Positions 43,364-54,649 of a stretch of DNA of 64,000 bases are shown in pieces. The position numbers and the translations under genes are program-made. A model generated the notes under the pieces. The model was not told the DNA's origin. It searched no databases and saw nothing but the letters and a program-made list of their open reading frames with translations. Numbering within the stretch: position 1 is the stretch's first letter; every line of letters begins with the position of its first letter. Source of the DNA: Lachnospiraceae bacterium (GTDB lineage: Bacteria > Bacillota > Clostridia > Lachnospirales > Lachnospiraceae); contig JAFSRP010000018.1 of NCBI GenBank assembly GCA_017446045.1, positions 62,001 to 126,000 on the forward strand, written 5' to 3'.

Positions 43364-43392
43364 TTGCCCCCTGCAATAGCTTGTGCTAAGAT
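43364..43392 (+). promoter_or_regulatory. Promoter of the L,D-transpeptidase gene
   Basis: TTGCCC (43364-43369), a 17-base spacer and extended -10 TGCTAAGAT (TAAGAT at 43387-43392). It shares the 13-mer TTGTGCTAAGATA with the promoter of the esterase gene at 50.9 kb. Confidence 0.6.
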
Positions 43393-43438
43393 AGGGTTTA
43401 ATATGATTGCCGCTCGACGGCACGGGAGGAAGATAAAC

Positions 43439-44308
43439 ATGCTGTATCATGATGACTGTACCCGCGGATGGTCACGTACTGTTCGCAAGTATGCCGCAGC
43501 CATGCTGTTGGCGGCTGCATTTCTGCTTACGCTCGGAGGATCTTTCGGGATCACTTCTTATGCGGATACGAGCCCGGATGTAGTGCTTTCCGCCGAAAGC
43601 GCGGGACCGGGGTCAAATGGCTGGGTGCAGCGTGATGACGGACAGTGGACATATATGAAGTGGGGGTTCCCGGTAAAAGGCCGTTGGGAGAACATCGGCG
43701 ACCGCTGGTACTGGTTCAATGCCGAAGGCGTGATGCAGACCGGCTGGATCGAGCTTGACGGTGCCGCATATTATCTTGCGGAAGCAACCACCGAAGGCCG
43801 TCCCATGGGCTCCTGCTATATTAATGAGACGACACCGGACGGATTTATCGTAGATGAAAACGGCGCGCGCTCCGGGCAGGCTGCGCCTCCGGTTCCGACT
43901 TCCGCTACCAGGCCCAACCCTTACGGTTATTCGTGTGTAGAAGTAGATATCACCAACCAGACTGTCTATTGCTATATCAATCAGGATCTGGTCGTCGTCA
44001 CCCCCTGCGTCACCGGCAACGCCTGGGCACATCCGACTTCGACCGGCGTTTTCCGTATCAATTCCAAGGAGCGGAACAGATACCTTCAGGGCTATAACAG
44101 CGACGGTTCACGTTATAAGAGCTGGGTCAATTTCTGGATGCCGTTCCATGGCGGACAGGGTCTGCACGATGCCGGATGGCGTTCTTCCTTCGGCGGCAAT
44201 ATCTATCAGAGCGGCGGGTCCCACGGCTGTGTCAATATGCCTTATGATGCCGCAGCCGCGATCTATAGTGTTTCATGGGTCGGAATGCCGGTCATTGTGC
44301 ATAAATAA
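43439..44308 (+). CDS. Secreted L,D-transpeptidase with cell-wall-binding repeats
   Basis: A 289-residue exported protein. An N-terminal signal segment (AAAMLLAAAFLLTLGGSFG) is followed by two or three choline-binding-type aromatic repeats (GRWENIGDRWYWFNAEGVMQ, GWIELDGAAYYL). A YkuD domain covers about residues 160-289, with the catalytic SHGCVNMP (Cys264) and upstream His in GGQGLHDAGW. It likely forms 3-3 peptidoglycan cross-links or attaches wall proteins. GGGAGGAAGAT precedes the start; earlier in-frame starts have no ribosome site. It opens the surface-gene block between ftsY and ylxM. Confidence 0.9.
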   Translation: MLYHDDCTRGWSRTVRKYAAAMLLAAAFLLTLGGSFGITSYADTSPDVVLSAESAGPGSNGWVQRDDGQWTYMKWGFPVKGRWENIGDRWYWFNAEGVMQTGWIELDGAAYYLAEATTEGRPMGSCYINETTPDGFIVDENGARSGQAAPPVPTSATRPNPYGYSCVEVDITNQTVYCYINQDLVVVTPCVTGNAWAHPTSTGVFRINSKERNRYLQGYNSDGSRYKSWVNFWMPFHGGQGLHDAGWRSSFGGNIYQSGGSHGCVNMPYDAAAAIYSVSWVGMPVIVHK

Positions 44309-44409: not shown

Positions 44410-45315
44410 ATGATCCAGATGTCTTTCTTATATGAACAAGTTAAGATCGGTCAAGTTACCGGCATGCGGCTCCTCGGATATGAAGGGGAAGCGCGCAGGC
44501 TGAGGGTGCCGGACAGTCTGGATGGACTGCCCGTGATTTCTGTAGGCAAACAGGCATTTACGGAGAAGAACCATAAGCTGGAGGAAGTGACCCTGCCTGC
44601 CGGTCTGCTGGAAGTCGAATCCTTTGCTTTCTCCTTCTGCAGCGCACTCAGAAAACTGAATCTGTCTGACAGCATCGTATCTTTTCATGACGGAGCCATA
44701 CGGACCTGTTTTAATCTCCGGGATATTGAGCTGAAGATCTCAAATAATGGTTTTGTTCTGGCGCGCCGCCTTTTGGGGGACAGTGACCGGAAGCTTCGGG
44801 TGAAGTTCCTTTTTTCGGAAGAGGACCTTCAGCTCGTGTTTCCTGATTATTACAGCAACAGCATTGAAGATACCAGATCCCAGGCATTCCATATACGGAT
44901 CGACGGCTGTGGTTTCAGTTACCGTGAATGTGTCTGCACCGGAGGTCTCAGGCTTCGGGAATATGACAGCCTTTTCGGACGTGCGGTATCTGCCGGGGAT
45001 CCGGAAGCGGCTGCGTCGATCGCGGTCTCGCGTCTTATGTACCCGCGGGGTCTTTCGGAACAGGCCGGCTGCGTATACAGGGACCATATCCGCAAACATA
45101 TGGAACAGATCCTGCCTCTTTGTATTCTGCAGGAAAACGAGGGGTGGATGGAATTACTGATGAAAGAAAAGCTGTTGTCTGAGGCGGATATGGATACGGC
45201 CCTCAGGCTGACGACCGAATACGGTCTTACACAGCTTTCGGGAGAGCTGATGGCTTACCGCAGTAATGAATATGGTACAAAGAAAGGCATCCTCACCTTA
45301 GAGGATGACTGGTAA
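44410..45315 (+). CDS. Leucine-rich-repeat protein of the LRR-VWA-MoxR operon
   Basis: A 301-residue protein without a signal peptide, so probably cytoplasmic. Residues about 25-115 form BspA-type leucine-rich repeats (LRVPDSLDGLPVISVGKQAF, LEEVTLPAGLLEVESFAF). A segment of unknown fold follows, then an alpha-helical C-terminus (about 190-290) with ankyrin-like helices. It is nine bases upstream of the VWA gene and likely cotranscribed with it and the MoxR ATPase. In such sets the LRR protein may select clients, but that is inference. The start could be the ATG at 44419 instead. Confidence 0.7.
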   Translation: MIQMSFLYEQVKIGQVTGMRLLGYEGEARRLRVPDSLDGLPVISVGKQAFTEKNHKLEEVTLPAGLLEVESFAFSFCSALRKLNLSDSIVSFHDGAIRTCFNLRDIELKISNNGFVLARRLLGDSDRKLRVKFLFSEEDLQLVFPDYYSNSIEDTRSQAFHIRIDGCGFSYRECVCTGGLRLREYDSLFGRAVSAGDPEAAASIAVSRLMYPRGLSEQAGCVYRDHIRKHMEQILPLCILQENEGWMELLMKEKLLSEADMDTALRLTTEYGLTQLSGELMAYRSNEYGTKKGILTLEDDW

Positions 45316-45323
45316 AGCCACGG

Positions 45324-46685
45324 ATGAAAACAAGAGAGAATCTGGAAGAACTCGGCATCCGAATACTGAATACTTCCCGCACGGAGCTCCTTCTCTCCAT
45401 GCGTTTTATGGGAAGCGCGCTGGACAGCCTTTCTTATGTGATGGATCTTACGACACGTACAGCAGGAACGGACGGTGTATTCATCCGTTTTAATCCGACT
45501 TTTCTGATGGAATTATGGCTGAACCGGCCGGTCCATCTCAACCGCCTTTATGTCCACATACTGCTTCACTGCATATTTCGGCATGTTTTTACGGCAGAGG
45601 ATCATGAAGATGCAGAACTGTTTGACCTCTGTGCCGATATTGCCGTTGAATCAGTGATCGACAGTATGGAATACAAGGCAGTGCAGACAACATGGTCTGA
45701 TTTCAGGCAGGGCTGGTATGAAAGACTGGAGAAAGATCTGGGGGTGCTGACCGCGGAAAAGCTGTACAGACACTTTACGATGCAGCGGCTCGGATATGAC
45801 GATCTTATACGCCTCCATAATGAATTTACCAAGGACGATCACGCGTTCTGGCAGCGCCTGCAGGAGCAAAAAGAAGAGAAGGACGGCAGCCGGCAGCCGG
45901 AAGATCATCCGGAAGAGGAAAACAAAAAGAGCGACAGTCCTGTTCCTTCCGAAACGGAAGACAAATGGAAGTCCCTAGCGGACAGGGTCAAGGTCGAACT
46001 GGAAGCAGCCGGAAGCGGCGGTTCCATGGAATACGGCAGTTTTCTCCGTACGCTGCGGTTTGTACAGAAACGACGAAGAGGGTATACGGATTTTCTGAAA
46101 CGTTTTTCCGTATTACATGAAGAAACAAAAGTCGATCCGGATTCCTTTGATTACGCCTACTACACGTTCGGAATGGATATGTACGGCAACATACCTCTGA
46201 TCGAGGAGAATGAGTACAGGGAAGCAAAGAAGATCCGGACGCTCGTGATCGCTCTCGACACGAGCGGATCCTGCCAGGCGACTCTCGTACAGCGATTTTT
46301 AAACGAGACCGCAGATATCCTGCAGCGGCAGGAATCATTTTTCCGTCATGCGGAAGTGCTGCTGCTTGAATGTGATAATGTTATACAGGAAGAGATCCAT
46401 TTTACAGATCCCCAGGAAATGAAAAAATACGCGGAAGGCTTTCAGATAAGAGGCGGTTTCGGAACCGATTTCCGGCCGGTATTCCGCCGCGTGGGGGAAC
46501 TGCTGAAAGAAGGAAGGCTGATAAACCTGAAAGGTATGATGTACTTCACTGACGGTTTCGGTCTTTATCCTGAAAGTCCCCCTTCATGGGAAACTGCCTT
46601 TGTTTTGTACCGCGAGGATCCCAGATCCGAGCCCAGTGTGCCGGAATGGGCTTATACCCTTTATCTGGACGGGAGTGATCTATGA
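45324..46685 (+). CDS. VWA-domain protein with degenerate metallopeptidase-like N-terminus (DUF2201-like)
   Basis: A 453-residue cytoplasmic protein. The N-terminal part resembles the DUF2201 putative metallopeptidase domain, but the HExxH helix reads HILLHCIFRH (H78, H82, H87) with no Glu. A charged linker follows (about residues 180-215). The C-terminal VWA domain has a full MIDAS: DTSGS (D312, S314, S316), the Thr in GGFGTDFRP and the Asp in YFTDGFG. The stop overlaps the MoxR start (ATGA). MoxR ATPases usually act with a VWA partner to insert metals or remodel client proteins. Here the client is unknown. Confidence 0.8.
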   Translation: MKTRENLEELGIRILNTSRTELLLSMRFMGSALDSLSYVMDLTTRTAGTDGVFIRFNPTFLMELWLNRPVHLNRLYVHILLHCIFRHVFTAEDHEDAELFDLCADIAVESVIDSMEYKAVQTTWSDFRQGWYERLEKDLGVLTAEKLYRHFTMQRLGYDDLIRLHNEFTKDDHAFWQRLQEQKEEKDGSRQPEDHPEEENKKSDSPVPSETEDKWKSLADRVKVELEAAGSGGSMEYGSFLRTLRFVQKRRRGYTDFLKRFSVLHEETKVDPDSFDYAYYTFGMDMYGNIPLIEENEYREAKKIRTLVIALDTSGSCQATLVQRFLNETADILQRQESFFRHAEVLLLECDNVIQEEIHFTDPQEMKKYAEGFQIRGGFGTDFRPVFRRVGELLKEGRLINLKGMMYFTDGFGLYPESPPSWETAFVLYREDPRSEPSVPEWAYTLYLDGSDL

Positions 46686-48214
46686 ATATTAAAAATGCAA
46701 AAGAAGAATTAAAGAACATCGTGATCTCTTATCTTGCGAAAGATGAGAACGGCCTGCCGCTGATCCCCGAAGAGCATCAGCGTCCGGTCCTCCTGATGGG
46801 GCCACCGGGCATCGGAAAAACTGCGATCGTAAAGCAGATCGCACAGGAAAAGGGGATCAATCTCGTTTCCTATACGATCACACATCACACACGGCAGTCT
46901 GCTATCGGACTTCCCGGTATCGTGCACCGTACCTATGATGGAGAGGATATTGCCGTTACGGAATATACCATGAGTGAGATCATTGCTTCCGTATATGCAC
47001 AGATCGAGCGTTCCGGAATAAGGGAAGGTATTCTGTTCCTTGATGAGATCAACTGTGTTTCCGAAACACTGGCTCCCACGATGCTGCAGTTCCTTCAGTT
47101 CAAGACCTTCGGGACGCACAGGGTGCCTGAGGGATTTGTGATCGTGACGGCAGGAAATCCGCCTGCCTATAATCTCTCTGTGCGTGAATTTGATATCGTA
47201 ACGCTGGATCGTTTGCGCCGCATCGATATTGAAGCGGATTATCCGGCTTTCAGGGAATATGCATTCCGCGCGGGCGTACACGGATCGATCATGGCTTATC
47301 TGGAGATCCGTAAGGACCGGTTTTACCAGGTGAATGCCGACACGGACCGCAAGCGATTTGTTACAGCCCGTGGATGGGAAGACCTTTCCGATGCCCTGCG
47401 CGCAAGTGAAATGCTGAAACTGCCGGTCACTGCGTCGCTTATAAGTCAATATCTTCAGGATCCTGATATTGCAGGCGATTTTGCGGTATATTATGAACTT
47501 TACAGAAAGTATGAAAGCTTTTATCAGGTTCCCGGCATTCTTGAGGGCAAGACCGATATCAGCAGTGAAATGAAATATGCTCCATTTGACGAAAAGCTGT
47601 CCCTGATCGCGCTTTTACATGATGCGCTGAATGCGGAATGCAGGACCTACCGCAACAGGCAGGCAGAAGCAGAAGGATTGCTGCATTTTCTGCAGGATTA
47701 CGGAAGGACATTGAAGGAGAAACAGGAGGAGGATCCTCATGTTATTCTGGACAGTATGCTGCGGAAGTATTCAGAAGAGCGCGAAGCGAAAAAACGCACG
47801 ACCATACTGACAGCGGAAGCTGAAGGCGATGCGGTCAGGATAGAGAGGGCGATCCGGGATCTTGGCAGGGAAATGAAGATATGGAATACGGAAAGCAGAG
47901 ATGCGAAGGCGGCTTTTTCCTATGCACGAAGCTGGTTTGCGGAAAAAGAAGAGGAGAGGCAACGGGAGATCAAAGAAACCGGCAGTCATTTCTCCAATGT
48001 TTTCAATGCCCTGGAAAAAGCTTTCGGCGAAGGACAGGAAATGGTCCTCTTTCTTTCCGAGGTGAATGCGGGCTACTACTGTCTTAAATATATCAATGAA
48101 TGCGGAAATGATGAATACTATAAATACAATAAACTGCTTCTTCTGAAAGAGCGGAATGACAGTCTGCGCAGAGAGATCCTTTCAGTCAGGGACCAGTCCC
48201 GCACAGAGCAATGA
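46682..48214 (+). CDS. MoxR-type AAA+ ATPase
   Basis: A 510-residue AAA+ ATPase. Walker A is GPPGIGKTA (G40-T47), Walker B is ILFLDEINCV, sensor 1 is TAGNPP and the arginine-finger region is LDRLRRIDIE. The AAA+ module covers about residues 1-260. A helical C-terminal extension of about 230 residues with coiled-coil character follows and is longer than in typical MoxR proteins. Translation is coupled to the VWA partner. Confidence 0.88.
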   Translation: MNIKNAKEELKNIVISYLAKDENGLPLIPEEHQRPVLLMGPPGIGKTAIVKQIAQEKGINLVSYTITHHTRQSAIGLPGIVHRTYDGEDIAVTEYTMSEIIASVYAQIERSGIREGILFLDEINCVSETLAPTMLQFLQFKTFGTHRVPEGFVIVTAGNPPAYNLSVREFDIVTLDRLRRIDIEADYPAFREYAFRAGVHGSIMAYLEIRKDRFYQVNADTDRKRFVTARGWEDLSDALRASEMLKLPVTASLISQYLQDPDIAGDFAVYYELYRKYESFYQVPGILEGKTDISSEMKYAPFDEKLSLIALLHDALNAECRTYRNRQAEAEGLLHFLQDYGRTLKEKQEEDPHVILDSMLRKYSEEREAKKRTTILTAEAEGDAVRIERAIRDLGREMKIWNTESRDAKAAFSYARSWFAEKEEERQREIKETGSHFSNVFNALEKAFGEGQEMVLFLSEVNAGYYCLKYINECGNDEYYKYNKLLLLKERNDSLRREILSVRDQSRTEQ

Positions 48215-48324
48215 TCCCCAGTTAAAATTGCACAAAAATCAGTAATTTTTTTCTTTTATTTCTGTGAATGAAATGATACTATTAGAATAGTCGTTTATTA
48301 TTCAGAACGGGAGGTTTATCTGTG

Positions 48325-50688
48325 ATGAAAAAGACAGCATATATAATCGCTATGATCACCGCATCTGTCCTGATACTGACAGCGTGCGGCAGTAAGAAAA
48401 CAGCAGAACCCGAAACTGCTGCGGAAGAAATAACCGCTGCCGAAACAACAGCTGAGGTTCCTCAGGAGACTGCTGCAGAAACGGAAGCGGCAGAAGAGAC
48501 GGAAGCGGAAGAAGCCGCTGTTGTCGCCGAGGAAACCGAAGCTGCGGAAGAAGAAACCGCGGAAGAAGTGCCGGCTGAAGAAGAGCCTGCCGTGGATGAG
48601 GTCTTTTCCAACGGCCTGTTTTCCATCACGATCCCGGCATACTTCGACGGCAGATACGAGGTCGACTATTCAGCCGATGATAACGGCATTATGGTCTATG
48701 ACAAGGCCGCAAAGGAGGCCGGCTGCGGAGGATTTGCCTTCGGTATAGCTGCGTTTGAAGATCCGGCCGACCGCGCGTATCTACCGGGCGGAACAAAAGT
48801 CGGAGAACTGTGCGCAGAAGACGGCACACTGTATGACATTGAGCTGATGCATCCCACCGATGTGCAGTGGGATTTCAATATCGGACCGGACGACTACATG
48901 GAGCTTTATGAGGCCGGTGAAGACATCGCACGCAGTATGACGGGCGATGCCGGCAGCACATTCGTTTACGGCGCAGGTACAAAAGGAGAGGATCTGTATC
49001 AGGAGATCCTCGCGAAGCACGTAGATGCGATCAGCGGGGAGTGGGATACCGCCGCTCTGGCCGAAGAGGATATGAGCCCCATGTATTATACTATGGCCTT
49101 GGACGGAAGGGGCGATGTCTTCGACAGGATCGGCTATGCATACTGTGACCTGAACGGAGACGGTGTGGACGAACTTATGATCGGTGAGATCGCTGATGGC
49201 GATTGGAAAGGTATCATTTATGATCTCTACGCCGTCATCAACAGGGAGCCCGTACATGTTCTCAGCGCAACCGGCAAAGACCGATTCTTCTCAGGTTCGG
49301 GGTCAACGCTCTGCAGCGAGTATTCCGAGGGCCCGTATGTACGGGGACTTCGTGTCTACACCATCGATGAAGGCAGCGGTGAGATTTCCCAGATCGTCGA
49401 TTTCAAGACGGATACATATGAAAATGAGGAACAGCCCTGGTTCGTAAACTATGATCCCGGCAACGAAGATGCCTGGGAAAATGTAACAGAGGAAGACTGG
49501 AATAGTTATAAGGCGAATTTCACTGAATACCGCCGTTTCGATTACGAGCCTCTTTCCGGTGTGCGTGATGCCGCCGAGGAATTTGCTGCCTATGATGTAT
49601 ACAGGGATCTCCTGAGAAGCGCCGGTTACGGAGAGGAGTCTACATGTGTCATCACACAGAAATATCCGTGTGCGGATGCTGTCGGATCAGCCATCGCTTA
49701 CGCATATCTGCTGAATGAGATCGGTGTAGACGCAGAGGCGGCGATCGGCGGAGAGCTTCAGGAAGAAGTTGCCTACGCGCTGGATGTATTTGGAGTTACG
49801 ATCCCCACGTTTGCTGAGACCGCAGGAGAAGGCCAGTTTGTACTGATCGATCACAGCAGTTACGCTGACGCTGTCGATGGAATGGACGGTGCCCGAATAC
49901 TCGGCCTTGTAGATCGCCACGGTATCGGAGATGTCGTTTCCTCCGGCCCCGTCAATATCAGGGTAGCTCCGGTAGGCGCAACGTCTACGCTCGTTTACAA
50001 GGCGTATGAAGAATGCGGCATCAAGATCCCGAGGAATATGGCCCGTGTGCTTCTGATGGGTATTGTCTCAGAGACGGGCAATATGTCAAAGTATTATACT
50101 GCGCTTGATAAGCAGGCCTATAAGGAGCTTAAGGCTATTGCAAGGATCAAGGATTTTGACGGATTCTGTGAGCTGATGGCAGCAGTCGGTGAGCCGGGAG
50201 AAGAGGTGCTTGCTGAGGAAGAAGAAGCAGAAGAGACTGAAGAAGCTCTTGATGCCGAGTCCGGAGAAGAGATCGCTTCCGATGAGACAGAACCGGAAGA
50301 AGCTCTGACTGATGAAGCCGGCGAACCAGAAGAAGCTGTCGTCGAAGAGGATGAGGGAGCAGAGGCTGAGGCACAGGACGAGGCAGCCCCTGAAGATGCT
50401 TCCGGAGAAGAAGAGATCTCTGAAGACGAGGAAGAGGCTTTGACGGAGGATGCTGAGATCACCGAGCCTGCAGATGCCGATACCGGAGAGGAGATCGCTG
50501 AGGAAGAGGTCTCTGAAGACAAAGAAGCCCCGGCTGCTGATGAGGATGCTGCCGCTGAAGAGGAAGAGGCTCCGGAAGATGAAAAGGACGCCGCAAAAAC
50601 GGGCAGTGGCGCCTCAAAATCAAAGTCTGCAAAGGTCCATTCAAAGGCAGATGTTTCCTCGGTTGAAAATCTTCCGGGAATAACGTGA
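48325..50688 (+). CDS. Lipoprotein with a degenerate family II pyrophosphatase (DHH) domain
   Basis: A 787-residue lipoprotein: signal peptide with lipobox LTAC (Cys21), Glu/Ala-rich linker (about 25-92), a globular domain (about 93-210), a segment with an EF-hand-like loop DLNGDGVDE (275-283), and a domain at about 440-640 clearly related to the N-terminal (DHH) half of family II inorganic pyrophosphatase. Matching blocks include GSAIAYAYLLNEIGVDAEA, LIDHSSYADAVDGMDGA, APVGATSTLVYKAYEE and IKIPRNMARVLLMGIVSET. Metal ligands are partly lost: the His and first Asp of GHxNPDTD are Gln445 and Cys449, while the second Asp is kept (D451). DHN keeps its Asp (D509), DHH reads DRH (530-532), and the later Asp is Glu583. 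The DHHA2 domain is absent; an acidic Ala/Glu tail (641-787) replaces it. GGGAGG precedes ATG 48325. Function is unknown, possibly a binding rather than a catalytic role. Confidence 0.85.
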   Translation: MKKTAYIIAMITASVLILTACGSKKTAEPETAAEEITAAETTAEVPQETAAETEAAEETEAEEAAVVAEETEAAEEETAEEVPAEEEPAVDEVFSNGLFSITIPAYFDGRYEVDYSADDNGIMVYDKAAKEAGCGGFAFGIAAFEDPADRAYLPGGTKVGELCAEDGTLYDIELMHPTDVQWDFNIGPDDYMELYEAGEDIARSMTGDAGSTFVYGAGTKGEDLYQEILAKHVDAISGEWDTAALAEEDMSPMYYTMALDGRGDVFDRIGYAYCDLNGDGVDELMIGEIADGDWKGIIYDLYAVINREPVHVLSATGKDRFFSGSGSTLCSEYSEGPYVRGLRVYTIDEGSGEISQIVDFKTDTYENEEQPWFVNYDPGNEDAWENVTEEDWNSYKANFTEYRRFDYEPLSGVRDAAEEFAAYDVYRDLLRSAGYGEESTCVITQKYPCADAVGSAIAYAYLLNEIGVDAEAAIGGELQEEVAYALDVFGVTIPTFAETAGEGQFVLIDHSSYADAVDGMDGARILGLVDRHGIGDVVSSGPVNIRVAPVGATSTLVYKAYEECGIKIPRNMARVLLMGIVSETGNMSKYYTALDKQAYKELKAIARIKDFDGFCELMAAVGEPGEEVLAEEEEAEETEEALDAESGEEIASDETEPEEALTDEAGEPEEAVVEEDEGAEAEAQDEAAPEDASGEEEISEDEEEALTEDAEITEPADADTGEEIAEEEVSEDKEAPAADEDAAAEEEEAPEDEKDAAKTGSGASKSKSAKVHSKADVSSVENLPGIT

Positions 50689-50938: not shown

Positions 50939-53900
50939 ATGAGAAAGACACGTTATTTGCTATTGGCAGGAGCTTTGGCCATATCTCTGTTCGCTGCCAG
51001 CACCGTGACGGCATATGCCGATACGGCAGAAGCTGCAGTAGAAGCTGAAGAAGCGGTTGAAGAGGCTGCTGAGGAAGAAGCTGCCGAAGAAGAAGCAGAA
51101 GCCACAGAAGCAGAGGCAGCAGAAGAAGCAGCTGCAGACGAAGCAGAAGCAACAGAAGAAGCTGATGTTGAAGAAGCAGAGGCTGCAGAAGAAGCCGTTG
51201 CTGAAGAAGCAGAAACAGTAGAAGAAGCTGCTGAAGAAACAGAAGCAGCAGCCGAAGATGTCAAAGGACCGGCTCTTACCGGCCTGACGGTGAGAGACAG
51301 CTCACTGAAGCCGATCTTTGAAGGCTTTGATCCGGAGATCACTGAGTATGCCGTGAATGTCCAGAGTGATATTTATGGCGTGCTGATCGATCCCAAGGCA
51401 CCCCTTGGCACAAAGGTGACTGTGACCGCTGATAAGGATGCTTTTGCGTATGACGGCACACAGAACTATGAAGCCGGGTCCAAGATCCCTTACAACTTTG
51501 ATCTTGACGGATATGTGGTCCAGCTTGGGCAGGCTTATGAAGATTATGACAGTGAGTTCATACAGACCGTGACCATCGAGCTGTCTGCTGCAGGTGTTTC
51601 TACAGATTATACCATCGTGATCACCAGGGCAGATGATGCCGAGACCTATGCTCTCTTTGAAGAGAAGGAGTTTACCGGTTCTGACGGAACGGTCATTCCT
51701 TATGAACTCTATGTTCCGACCACTTATGATGAGTCCAAGGAATATCCTGTAGTCTTTGCGCTTCATGGCTCCGGACAGAGAGCACAGCCTCTCGACATGG
51801 TTTTGAAGAGATATCAGATGGCGACCATCTGGGCTAAGGATTCCGAGGCCGGACACAATGAGTGTATCGTACTGGCACCGCAGTGCGCGTCGGATGACCC
51901 GAACGTGAACTGGACAACACTGCAGGCTTCTGAAGCAGGAGAGGCAGATGACACGTTTGCGCCAATGCCGCAGCTTGATGCAGCTTATGAGCTCCTGCTC
52001 GAGGTACTGGACGAGTATTCCTGTGACAAGGACCGCGTATACATGACCGGCCTTTCCGCAGGAGGCTGGGCTACCTTTACGCTTGCCGAAATGTATCCGG
52101 ATACTTTTGCCGCTATCGCTCCTGATGCAGCCGGAGCAGATCCCGCAGGCATTGATGCTCTGCAGGGCATGCCGATATGGATCTTCCAGGCAGCAGGAGA
52201 TCCTTCTGTACCGCCGGAGAAATGGTACTATCCGACGATCATGGCACTGGACGCGCATGGCATTGAGTACAATCGGACTTTCTATAAGGAAGGCGATATA
52301 TTCTTCCCGCACGCTCATTTCAGCTGGGTGGCAATGTATGCGGATGAAGAGTTCCGTGACTGGATGTTTGCGCAGACAAAATATCATCTCACCGAAGAGG
52401 ATGCGGTCCTTACCGGCCTTGGTATAAGAGATGCAACACAGAAAGAGATCTTTGAAGGATTTGATGCGGAAAAGACAGAGTTTGCTGTCGATGTACAAAG
52501 CGATATCTACGGTGTCCTGATCAGCCCGGAGGCTGCAAAGGGCGCTAAGATCACTGTGACAGCTGACAAGGATGCTCTTGCTTATGACGAGACAGTCAAC
52601 TATCAGGCCGGAGATCCGATTCCTTATGACAAGTCTCTTGGCGGCTATGTCGTTCAGCTTGGTCAGTCTTATGCGGATTATGATGATGTATTCGTTCAGA
52701 CAGCAACGATCACTGTTGAAGCAGCCGGCGCATCCAACGAGTATAAAGTCGTGATCACAAGAGCAGACGATAATGATGTCTACGATCTCTTCGATATTGA
52801 GGAGTTTACGGATGACGAAGGCACCACGATCCCCTATGCGATCTATGTGCCCTCAAACTATGACGCTTCCAAGGAGTATCCGCTGGTATTCGCTCTCCAT
52901 GGATCCGGACAGAGGACACAGCCGACCGATATGGTCCTGAAGAGATACCAGATGGCGACCATCTGGGCCAAGGACTCCGAGGAAGGCCACAACGAGTGTA
53001 TCGTTCTTGCTCCGCATTGCGCGATCGAAGATCCCGATACCCAGAACTGGTGCAATAAGAATGAAGACGGCTACTATGAGGACAGCCCGGAACTGACTGC
53101 CGCATACGCGCTTCTCGGTTCTGTGATCGACGAATATTCCGTTGATACAAACCGTATTTATATGACCGGTCTTTCCGCAGGCGGACGCGCCACCTTCAGT
53201 CTTGCCATCCAGCATCCGGATGTATTTGCCGCGATCGCTCCTGATGCAGCAGGTGCAAACCTTAGTGACATTACCGCTCTGAAGGGAGTTCCGATCTGGC
53301 TGTTCCAGGCTGCGGATGACCCGACTGTAGACGCTAAAGCGAACTACTACGAGCAGATCAAGATCTTTGATGCGGAAGGTATCGATTATAAGTCCACCGT
53401 TTATAAAGAAGGCGCTGTCTTCTTCCCGAGTGCGCATTTCAGCTGGGTGCCGATGTATGCTGACGAAGAGTTCCGTGACTGGCTGTTCGAACAGAATCTG
53501 GCAGAAAACAACCTGGCCGGACCCGAGGACGCGATCCTGACGGATCTCGGACTGAGAGACGCTACCCTGAAGGAGATCTTCGACGGCTTCGATCCCATGC
53601 TGGATGAGTTTGAGGCAACGGTACAGAGTGACATCTACGGTGTGCTTCTCTGCGCGGCAGCTCCGAGGGGTGCCGCCATCAGTGTAACTGCTGATACGGA
53701 TGCCTTTGCTTATGACGGAACACTGAATTATGAAGCCGGTACCGAGATCCCCTATGACGATAAGCTGGGCGGATATGTTGTACAGTTAGGACAGGAATAT
53801 GATGACTATGACAGCGAGTTCATTCAGACTGTTACGGTCACGGTTTCCGCGGGCGGCGCATCCAAGGATTATAAGGTCGTGATCACCAGGGAAGATGACT

Positions 53901-54649
53901 CCGATGTCTATGAGCTGTTCCAGGCGAAGGAATTCACGGATTCCGCGGGAACTGTGATCCCGTATGAACTGTATGTTCCGACAGATTATGATGAGACGAA
54001 GAAATATCCGGTAGTCTTTGCGCTGCATGGTTCCGGCCAGCGTACACAGCCTCTTGATATGGTCCTGAAGAGATATCAGATGGCAACTATCTGGGCAAAG
54101 GATTCTGAAGAAGGCCACAACGAGTGTATCGTACTGGCACCGCAGTGTACGGTCGAAGATGCCAATGTCGAAAACTGGACGACACTGATGGCATTCCGCG
54201 CGGGTGAAGCTGAAAACTCATACGCGCCGATGCCGCAGCTGGATGCAGCGTATGAGCTGCTTCTGGAAGTACTGGACGAGTATTCCTGTGACAAGGACCG
54301 TGTATACATGACCGGCCTTTCCGCAGGCGGATATGCAACGTTCACCCTGGCTGCAATGTATCCCGATACCTTTGCGGCGATCGCACCGGATGCTTCCGGC
54401 GCTGATCCCGAGACCGTGGGAGCAATGAAAGGTATTCCGATGTGGATCTTCCAGGCAGCTGATGATCCGACAGTTGCCGTTGAGACCAACTATTATCCGA
54501 CCATTCAGGCACTTGATGCCGCAGGAGTCGAGTACAAGAGAACTGTTTACAGCGACGGCGAAGTCTTCTTCCCGAGCGCGCACTTCAGTTGGGTCCCGAT
54601 GTATGCGGATGAAGAATTCCGCGACTGGATGTTTGAACAGTCGAAATAA
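50939..54649 (+). CDS. Secreted protein with three tandem beta-sandwich/esterase modules
   Basis: A 1236-residue exported protein. A signal peptide ends near AYA-DT (residue 27), a Glu/Ala-rich linker spans about 29-108, and three consecutive units of about 375 residues start at 113, 491 and 867. Each unit has a cadherin-like beta-sandwich (TEYAVNVQSDIYGVLI type) followed by an alpha/beta-hydrolase of the PHB-depolymerase/feruloyl-esterase kind. Each hydrolase has VVFALHGSGQR or a close variant, the nucleophile in GLSAGG (S373, S746, S1128), an acid in the GDPSVP/DDPTV segment and a His in the AHFSW segment. All three triads look intact. No wall anchor is visible, so it may be released. Likely substrates are ester-linked plant or host polymers; the actual one is unknown. 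GGAGGG precedes the start. Confidence 0.88.
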   Translation: MRKTRYLLLAGALAISLFAASTVTAYADTAEAAVEAEEAVEEAAEEEAAEEEAEATEAEAAEEAAADEAEATEEADVEEAEAAEEAVAEEAETVEEAAEETEAAAEDVKGPALTGLTVRDSSLKPIFEGFDPEITEYAVNVQSDIYGVLIDPKAPLGTKVTVTADKDAFAYDGTQNYEAGSKIPYNFDLDGYVVQLGQAYEDYDSEFIQTVTIELSAAGVSTDYTIVITRADDAETYALFEEKEFTGSDGTVIPYELYVPTTYDESKEYPVVFALHGSGQRAQPLDMVLKRYQMATIWAKDSEAGHNECIVLAPQCASDDPNVNWTTLQASEAGEADDTFAPMPQLDAAYELLLEVLDEYSCDKDRVYMTGLSAGGWATFTLAEMYPDTFAAIAPDAAGADPAGIDALQGMPIWIFQAAGDPSVPPEKWYYPTIMALDAHGIEYNRTFYKEGDIFFPHAHFSWVAMYADEEFRDWMFAQTKYHLTEEDAVLTGLGIRDATQKEIFEGFDAEKTEFAVDVQSDIYGVLISPEAAKGAKITVTADKDALAYDETVNYQAGDPIPYDKSLGGYVVQLGQSYADYDDVFVQTATITVEAAGASNEYKVVITRADDNDVYDLFDIEEFTDDEGTTIPYAIYVPSNYDASKEYPLVFALHGSGQRTQPTDMVLKRYQMATIWAKDSEEGHNECIVLAPHCAIEDPDTQNWCNKNEDGYYEDSPELTAAYALLGSVIDEYSVDTNRIYMTGLSAGGRATFSLAIQHPDVFAAIAPDAAGANLSDITALKGVPIWLFQAADDPTVDAKANYYEQIKIFDAEGIDYKSTVYKEGAVFFPSAHFSWVPMYADEEFRDWLFEQNLAENNLAGPEDAILTDLGLRDATLKEIFDGFDPMLDEFEATVQSDIYGVLLCAAAPRGAAISVTADTDAFAYDGTLNYEAGTEIPYDDKLGGYVVQLGQEYDDYDSEFIQTVTVTVSAGGASKDYKVVITREDDSDVYELFQAKEFTDSAGTVIPYELYVPTDYDETKKYPVVFALHGSGQRTQPLDMVLKRYQMATIWAKDSEEGHNECIVLAPQCTVEDANVENWTTLMAFRAGEAENSYAPMPQLDAAYELLLEVLDEYSCDKDRVYMTGLSAGGYATFTLAAMYPDTFAAIAPDASGADPETVGAMKGIPMWIFQAADDPTVAVETNYYPTIQALDAAGVEYKRTVYSDGEVFFPSAHFSWVPMYADEEFRDWMFEQSK
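51275..54646 (+). repeat. Three direct repeats of about 1.1 kb inside the esterase gene
   Basis: Units at 51275-52408, 52409-53536 and 53537-54646 share long near-identical stretches, for example around the segments encoding RYQMATIWAKDSE and GLSAGG. They could recombine to change copy number. Confidence 0.85.

What the first reader, a model, noticed from the sequence alone, without database searches (positions are those of the whole stretch)
48325..50688. A lipoprotein carries a ligand-depleted family II pyrophosphatase DHH domain
Seen: residues 440-640 follow the N-terminal domain of family II inorganic pyrophosphatase block by block (SAIAYAYLLNEIG, VDGMDGARILGLVDRHGIGD, APVGATSTLVYKAYEECG, IPRNMARVLLMGIVSET), inside a protein with a lipobox at Cys21. 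Known: these enzymes are cytoplasmic and use His9, Asp13, Asp15, Asp75, His97 and Asp149 (B. subtilis numbering) plus a C-terminal DHHA2 lid. Here three positions are Gln, Cys and Arg, one is Glu, and the lid is replaced by an acidic tail. Inference: an exported pseudoenzyme reused as a binding or sensing module for phosphorylated ligands or metals, which I have not seen described.
Basis: partly seen in the sequence, partly recalled or inferred. Interest (0 to 1): 0.8.

Follow-up and report, generated by a model that had tools for sequence, protein, structure and literature searches.

The report
Surface lipoprotein with dead pyrophosphatase domain
A bacterium carries a lipoprotein fused to a well-folded but probably inactive half of a pyrophosphatase, and its nearest relatives turn out to be little-noticed intact pyrophosphatases that also look exported from the cell.

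Summary
ORF 48325-50688 encodes a 787-aa lipoprotein whose residues ~425-630 are the N-terminal (DHH) domain of a family II pyrophosphatase: NF003877 E=6e-40, Pfam DHH E=3e-10, AlphaFold pLDDT 90, target-normalised TM 0.89 to the solved B. subtilis N-terminal core. Four of six metal ligands are replaced (H9Q, D13C, H97R, D149E), D15 and D75 are kept, and the DHHA2 lid is absent.

The premise that these enzymes are cytoplasmic is too narrow. Thirty relatives form one clade with the window domain (99/97); 29 keep all six ligands (L109 changes one), all 30 keep the lid's RK pair, and 28 pass a rough test for an N-terminal signal or anchor. The nearest, lipoprotein L093, is 50-52% identical and intact. 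Multiple ligand substitutions were seen in this copy only, on a long branch; two other members are broken.

The domain follows a lipoprotein "head" that ends there in four relatives and carries other C-terminal stretches in others. Best reading: an exported pyrophosphatase N-domain was added to a modular lipoprotein; catalysis was lost and the fold kept, perhaps as a structural or dimerising module. Decay is the main rival. Ligand sensing is untested.

The parts
48310..48314 (+). GGAGG ribosome-binding-site-like sequence
   Evidence: read
48325..48387 (+). signal peptide with lipobox LTAC, residues 1-21 (Cys21)
   Evidence: translation; motif recalled, no predictor run
48388..48606 (+). acidic E/A/T-rich linker, residues 22-94 (27 D/E, 2 K/R of 73)
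48607..49566 (+). lipoprotein 'head', residues 95-414; no match in Pfam, NCBIfam or PDB sequences; relatives exist head-only or with other C-terminal stretches
49597..50214 (+). family II pyrophosphatase N-terminal (DHH) domain, residues 425-630, ligand-depleted
49657..49659 (+). Gln445 at the position of metal ligand His9
49669..49671 (+). Cys449 at the position of metal ligand Asp13
49675..49677 (+). Asp451, metal ligand Asp15 kept
49849..49851 (+). Asp509, metal ligand Asp75 kept
49915..49917 (+). Arg531 at the position of metal ligand His97 (DHH motif reads DRH)
50071..50073 (+). Glu583 at the position of metal ligand Asp149
50215..50595 (+). acidic low-complexity tail, residues 631-757 (65 D/E, 2 K/R), where the DHHA2 lid would be
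50596..50685 (+). short basic C-terminal end, residues 758-787; no other copy found in the held genome

Best explanation
Shown: the gene encodes a lipobox protein made of a head (a domain at whose end the protein stops in four relatives), the N-terminal domain of an exported-type family II pyrophosphatase, and an acidic tail in place of the catalytic lid. Shown: four of six metal ligands and the lid are gone while the ORF stays open and without an internal gap against its nearest relative. Inferred: it cannot hydrolyse pyrophosphate; it arose when the exported enzyme's gene (or its first half) was joined in frame to the end of the lipoprotein gene. Inferred, weaker: the domain is now a folded structural, dimerising or protein-binding module held off the membrane by acidic spacers, because the N-domain has been solved on its own (1WPN) and because this lipoprotein family differs in its C-terminal stretches between species. 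I hold 'inactive exported fusion that keeps the fold' at about 0.85 and 'structural, dimerising or protein-binding role rather than small-ligand sensing or decay' at about 0.4.
For: Domain identity and fold: pLDDT 90.4, pTM 0.89; PDB ranks 1-16 are family II PPases; 1WPN, the N-terminal core alone, TM 0.89 by target length. Ligand loss. Placement inside the exported clade: (10-row subgroup, 99/96 and, with nine ligand/motif columns removed, 97/96). Of 28 columns invariant in 30 exported rows, the window changes 6; each of those rows, left out in turn, changes 0-2 of 28-30. Ligands are over-represented among the changed conserved columns, 4 of 6 against 3 of 17 (one-sided Fisher p=0.045, on the columns). 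No stop in 184 codons, against 3.1 expected after neutral drift to 63% identity (none in 4.5% of 400 runs), and no internal gap against L093 from residue 435 on. GC and codon usage of head and domain resemble neighbouring genes. Modular head: head-only lipoproteins L148, L149, L150, L151, and different C-terminal additions in L147, L069 (same gene as L061), L070 (same gene as L062) and L063.
Against: Only one genome (79% complete draft, 63 contigs) carries it; none of the other 24 held for its genus shows it (some are only 53-80% complete), so selection on this copy cannot be measured. The long branch (1.12 against a median 0.15) and changes at conserved non-ligand sites (G444T, T482V, G502E) also fit a domain simply decaying. 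p=0.045 is weak, and the drift simulation is crude and rests on my estimate of 63% identity to the ancestor. In one search the codon reference was the same neighbours, and the two acidic linkers score near zero. The AlphaFold alignment held 31 mostly intact relatives, which pulls the model towards their fold. Nothing tests dimerisation or binding.
Confidence: 0.5

Rival explanations
1. Decaying passenger: after the fusion the pyrophosphatase half had no function and is drifting; lost ligands and lid are first signs of decay, not a new role.
For: Very long end branch: longest of 48 rows (1.12; L130 1.1), second of 36; 6 of 28 invariant columns changed, including non-ligand sites; single genome. 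Two other members of the clade are broken: L119 lacks the stretch from the DHH motif to SDT, L136 leaves the frame.
Against: No stop over 184 codons and no internal gap against L093, codon usage of the domain like its neighbours and out-of-frame controls clearly worse, domain modelled with high confidence, though on an alignment of intact relatives.
Confidence: 0.3
2. Binding or sensing module: the remaining acidic residues, Arg531 and His532 bind a metal, phosphate or pyrophosphate without hydrolysis, and the lipoprotein reports or captures it outside the cell.
For: D451, D509, E583, H510, D530, H532 present; exported relatives would be expected to act on extracellular pyrophosphate (inference); an Arg replacing a metal ligand could stand in for a cation (inference).
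Against: The lid with its substrate Lys/Arg is absent; the H9/D13/D75 site keeps one of three ligands (site composition recalled); among 32 exported-type loci the only neighbours shared by three or more loci are two small clusters of three loci each; no transducer is visible in this gene.
Confidence: 0.2
3. The protein is still an active hydrolase with altered metals, using D451, D509, E583 and H532 for one metal, perhaps on another phosphoester.
For: Asp-to-Glu at one ligand is conservative; L109, an otherwise normal relative, has Asn at D13.
Against: Both ligand histidines and D13 changed together, His to Arg in the DHH motif, no lid.
Confidence: 0.03
4. Assembly chimera: two genes wrongly joined in the draft genome.
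For: Draft genome, 63 contigs, 79% complete; no relative found here shows the same fusion.
Against: In frame through both joins, similar GC (0.530, 0.528) and codon scores in head and domain, contig of 359 kb; the acidic linker style at both ends is the same and is shared with the downstream gene.
Confidence: 0.04

Closest known systems
Family II (Mn-dependent) inorganic pyrophosphatase, e.g. B. subtilis PpaC (1K23, 1WPN), Shewanella 6LL7, S. mutans 1I74
   Same: N-terminal DHH domain by sequence and predicted fold; D15, D75, D96, H98 equivalents kept
   Different: four of six metal ligands changed, no DHHA2 lid, lipoprotein signal, fused to an unrelated head
Exported or anchored family II PPase clade found here (L093-L107, L109-L112, L114-L118, L120, L121, L125, L126, L129, L132; similar: Selenomonas ruminantium plasmid pSRC7 WP_014431014.1, not placed in the tree)
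   Same: one clade with the window domain; DHS motif; L093 also has a lipobox; homology to L093 starts at its post-signal YRxLL...YG segment
   Different: 29 of 30 keep all ligands and all 30 keep the RK pair of the lid; in the rows read, no such head and no acidic tail
Lipoprotein head family (L147-L152, L061-L063)
   Same: 49-51% identical head in three same-genus genomes; lipobox and linker of similar style
   Different: others end after the head or carry other C-terminal stretches; no DHH domain seen on reading them (Pfam run on L069 and L070 only: no family)
Other DHH phosphoesterases (NrnA, GdpP, RecJ-like, yeast PPX1)
   Same: DHH superfamily fold, weaker Foldseek matches
   Different: 15-20% identity in the listed rows; different second domain (recalled)

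Membership tests
DHH superfamily (PF01368) | profile match over the curated cut-off | tested here: met
   40.9 bits against 28.1
Family II inorganic pyrophosphatase | N-terminal domain sequence and fold | tested here: met
   NF003877 E=5.7e-40 over positions 3-187; Foldseek to 1WPN TM 0.89 by target length
Family II inorganic pyrophosphatase | full-length curated score | tested here: not met
   137.7 bits against 283; note that two lid-bearing exported relatives also stay under it (265.9 and 241.9)
Family II inorganic pyrophosphatase | six metal ligands H9, D13, D15, D75, H97, D149 | tested here: not met
   two of six kept
Family II inorganic pyrophosphatase | DHHA2 domain with SRKKQ-type signature | tested here: not met
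   no Pfam match in the protein at E<=1; only DHHA2 found in the genome is elsewhere; no similarity of the tail to L093's second domain
Family II inorganic pyrophosphatase | Mn/Co-dependent pyrophosphate hydrolysis | not testable with these tools
   needs an assay
Exported family II PPase clade (defined here) | groups with it in a tree against cytoplasmic PPases | tested here: met
   99/97 for 30 rows plus window; 100/99 for 27 rows plus window, nine ligand/motif columns removed
Exported family II PPase clade (defined here) | N-terminal signal, lipobox or membrane anchor | tested here: met
   window: lipobox at Cys21; relatives: 28 of 30 over a hydropathy threshold of my choosing, 17 of 17 cytoplasmic comparison rows under it or too short to score; no dedicated predictor
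Bacterial lipoprotein | lipid-modified Cys21, surface location | not testable with these tools
   motif only
Pseudoenzyme | fold kept, catalytic residues lost, function kept under selection | tested here: inconclusive
   predicted fold and residue loss met; selection only indirectly, one sequence

The most novel reading that the evidence does not exclude
An unnoticed clade of exported family II pyrophosphatases acts on extracellular pyrophosphate in gut bacteria, and in one lineage a copy lost its metals and lid and became a surface receptor or dimerising module on a modular lipoprotein, with Arg531 as a built-in cation where the metal cluster sat, able to hold phosphate or pyrophosphate without cutting it.
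Probability: 0.12. Interest if true: 0.75.

Novelty: new variant of a known kind. Interest (0 to 1): 0.5.

Why it matters
It indicates that family II pyrophosphatases, treated as cytoplasmic in the review passages I could read, have a branch with intact active sites and export or anchor signals, many of its records coming from animal guts by title; this raises the testable question of who makes and who uses pyrophosphate outside the cell. Within that branch the window protein is an apparent case of an enzyme half turned into a non-catalytic part of a lipoprotein.

Tried and rejected
Close relatives by single-sequence scan of genome contigs: 28 stretches matched a pattern, none confirmed; the scan with the two-row alignment A2 gave 45 confirmed loci of 231. 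Viral contigs: 60 stretches, none confirmed. Phages: 13 records, 33-39% identity in the ten listed, not examined further. Plasmids: 30 records, ten listed, only the Selenomonas hit examined. Neighbourhood of the exported enzymes, 32 loci, mechanical ORFs of at least 110 aa: apart from the enzyme itself and its antisense frames, only two clusters shared by three loci, L099/L101/L106 (not examined) and the close relatives L102/L103/L104. Tail as a lid remnant: no similarity. Tail end as a repeated sorting signal: no second copy in the held genome. Head fold: single-sequence AlphaFold failed (pLDDT 36), no PDB sequence match. Exact sister of the window domain: not resolved (p-AU 0.46 for pairing with L093). 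Another copy with several ligands substituted: not found among 45 loci, nor among the few matches at the strict thresholds used in 397 family, 398 phylum and 391 class genomes, which overlap and where a degenerate copy could fall below the cut-off; the looser family search of 299 genomes was listed only in part.

Rows dropped before the ligand, invariant-column and tree counts: of 45 loci, 11 CBS-pyrophosphatases and L130 served as cytoplasmic comparison with five further rows (four canonical, one own CBS); L131 (contig cut), L119 (internal deletion) and L136 (frame lost) were left out. The second tree also left out L130, L099-L101 and eight comparison rows to reduce long branches and size.

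Full report
What was checked. The ORF at 48325-50688 is real and continuous: 787 residues, lipobox LTAC at Cys21, GGAGG ahead of the ATG. Residues 441-580 match Pfam DHH over its cut-off, residues 439-622 match positions 3-187 of the 308-position family II pyrophosphatase model NF003877 at E=5.7e-40, and the eleven best solved relatives are inorganic pyrophosphatases. Against these and against a canonical relative, the six metal-ligand positions read Q, C, D, D, R, E instead of H, D, D, D, H, D. A 2026 paper on the Shewanella enzyme, of which I saw passages only, builds its active-site model from His8, Asp12, Asp14, Asp72, Asp93, His94, His95, Asp146, Lys203, Arg293 and Lys294 (PMC13219714); I take the first eight as the positions discussed here and the last three as lying in the second domain. 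The second domain, DHHA2, is absent: the protein has no such match, the only DHHA2 found in the held genome is in its CBS-pyrophosphatase, which has all ligands, and the tail resembles nothing in L093's second domain.

Fold. AlphaFold2 on the window domain with 31 relatives gave mean pLDDT 90.4 and pTM 0.89, with only the last 11 residues under 50. Foldseek puts family II pyrophosphatases at ranks 1-16; the B. subtilis N-terminal core solved alone, 1WPN, aligns at 2.0 A with TM 0.89 by target length. Because the alignment consists mostly of intact relatives, the model shows that the sequence is compatible with the fold, not that it is stable without metals.

Relatives. In the window's own genome the only other match at E<=0.01 is the CBS-pyrophosphatase. 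In the 25 genomes held for the genus, four of them without any match, no second copy of this fusion appears: the other matches have open frames of 548-605 residues and align in the pattern of CBS-pyrophosphatases. In 397 family genomes the search at E<=1e-45 lists the window, G101 and G323, the last a canonical enzyme. G101 led the way: a 415-aa protein with one N-terminal hydrophobic helix and a pyrophosphatase with all ligands; locus L110 encodes the identical protein. A scan of genome contigs with the stretch shared by the two returned 45 loci. Of these, 11 are CBS-pyrophosphatases, L130 is a cytoplasmic-type enzyme, L131 is cut by its contig, L119 and L136 are broken, and 30 form the set used below.

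The exported clade. In 28 of the 30 a hydrophobic segment precedes the domain (a simple hydropathy threshold of my choosing, not a signal-peptide predictor); L107 falls just under the threshold and L095 has none. All 17 cytoplasmic comparison rows fall under it or have an N-terminus too short to score. In the subgroup that holds the window domain, 8 of 9 rows have a cleavable-looking signal or a lipobox (L093); three Phascolarctobacterium rows have signal-like N-termini; in the remaining 18 the N-terminus holds mostly a single helix, and which side of the membrane the enzyme lies on is not proved there. 29 of 30 have all six ligands (L109 has Asn at D13), and all 30 keep the Arg-Lys pair of the lid. 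In the tree the 30 rows plus the window stand on one side of a branch with support 99/97, and the window sits in the ten-row signal/lipoprotein subgroup with 99/96, or 97/96 with nine ligand and motif columns removed and several long rows left out. Its exact sister is unresolved. Its end branch, 1.12, is the longest of 48 rows (next L130, 1.1; median 0.15); in the second tree it is second (1.07, after L003 at 1.11). The program warns that the place of such a long row is unsure.

Is the loss specific? Of 28 columns invariant in the 30 exported rows the window changes six (G444T, H445Q, T482V, G502E, H531R, D583E; D449C is not counted because L109 also varies there). Each exported row tested in the same way changes none to two. 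Among 23 columns conserved in at least 46 of 47 pyrophosphatases of both kinds, four of the six ligands and three of the other 17 are changed, one-sided Fisher p=0.045. This is a mild excess at the active site on top of a fast-evolving domain. Simulated neutral drift of the 184 codons to 63% identity gives 3.1 stops on average and none in 4.5% of 400 runs; the 63% is my estimate from branch lengths, and at 80% identity 21% of runs have none. Against L093 there is no internal gap from residue 435 to the end of the domain. Head and domain have like GC and codon scores, in the range of five neighbouring genes that were also the reference (the head at its lower edge), while out-of-frame readings score clearly worse and the two acidic linkers near zero. 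Together these favour, without proving, a protein kept as a protein.

The host protein. The head, residues 95-414, has no match in Pfam, NCBIfam or the PDB sequences at the thresholds used. Three same-genus genomes have it at 49-51% identity: two continue for 681 and 690 residues that include, by eye, four repeated modules (L069, L070) and one into a different C-terminal stretch (L063). A search of 250 family genomes found 17 with a match at E<=1e-6, the window's own included. Of the six best other loci, read at the frame level, four end right after the head (L148, L149, L150, L151), L147 carries another C-terminal stretch, and L152 runs off the end of its locus; the weaker matches were not read. 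The window's DHH domain begins just after this natural end, and the homology to exported enzymes starts with their own post-signal segment (YRDLLRSAGYGEEST against YRSLLTSFDYGEETT in L093). The simplest history is an in-frame fusion of a complete lipoprotein with an exported pyrophosphatase whose second half was lost or left behind.

How it likely works. The protein is exported and anchored by lipid (motif evidence). It very probably cannot hydrolyse pyrophosphate, since both ligand histidines, D13 and the whole lid are missing. What remains is a stable-looking alpha/beta domain between acidic, presumably disordered stretches. I think a structural, dimerising or protein-binding role most likely; that the PPase N-domains form the enzyme's dimer contact is recalled from the structural literature and was not tested here. 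A sensor for phosphate, pyrophosphate or metal is possible but loses most of the known binding residues. Decay after the fusion is the strongest rival.

Known or new. The 2024 review PMC11210485 (passages seen) treats family II enzymes under 'cytoplasmic PPases'; 'lipoprotein' does not occur in its text, its one 'signal peptide' concerns a presumed mitochondrial targeting sequence, and no passage found by the words extracellular, periplasm or secret describes an exported family II enzyme. Two papers list an ordinary manganese-dependent pyrophosphatase in proteomic tables: in a heparin-bound protein table of Staphylococcus aureus (PMC5480030) and, marked as no signal-peptidase substrate, in Streptococcus sanguinis (PMC5817204) (passages). 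Searches for exported, secreted or periplasmic pyrophosphatase, for family II with signal peptide, for DHH with lipoprotein and for pseudoenzyme with pyrophosphatase listed no paper that by title and abstract start describes such proteins (open-licence papers only; one search listed 12 of 141). PMC7062746 was opened for residue names and gave no passage. So, as far as those searches reach, both the exported clade and the dead fusion appear undescribed, but the parts are of known kinds: a new variant.

Noticed in passing
L093-L107, L109-L112, L114-L118, L120, L121, L125, L126, L129, L132: A clade of exported or membrane-anchored family II pyrophosphatases with (29 of 30) intact metal ligands, patchily spread over records labelled Oscillospiraceae, Lachnospiraceae, Erysipelotrichaceae, Anaerovoracaceae, Christensenellaceae, Acidaminococcaceae and one actinobacterium, many from animal guts by title.
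   Followed up: partly
L145 3866-4954 (Selenomonas ruminantium plasmid pSRC7): A family II pyrophosphatase with an N-terminal hydrophobic segment lies on a plasmid typed as mobilizable, between a ShlB/FhaC-type secretion transporter gene and a large filamentous adhesin gene.
   Followed up: no
L119 3674-4375: Butyrivibrio sp. INlla14 lipoprotein of the same kind with an in-frame loss of the stretch from the DHH motif to the SDT motif; the RK pair of the lid is kept. A second, different degeneration or an assembly collapse.
   Followed up: partly
L109: An otherwise normal anchored pyrophosphatase has Asn in place of metal ligand Asp13 and Cys in the DHS motif.
   Followed up: no
window 50939-54649: 1236-aa protein with a signal-like start, an E/A-rich linker and three repeated cadherin-like plus esterase stretches in one chain.
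   Followed up: partly
window 45324-48214: DUF2201/VWA-like gene overlapping a MoxR-like AAA ATPase gene, beside a BspA-type leucine-rich-repeat gene (44410-45315).
   Followed up: no
window 43364-44308: L,D-transpeptidase (YkuD) with choline-binding-type repeats.
   Followed up: no
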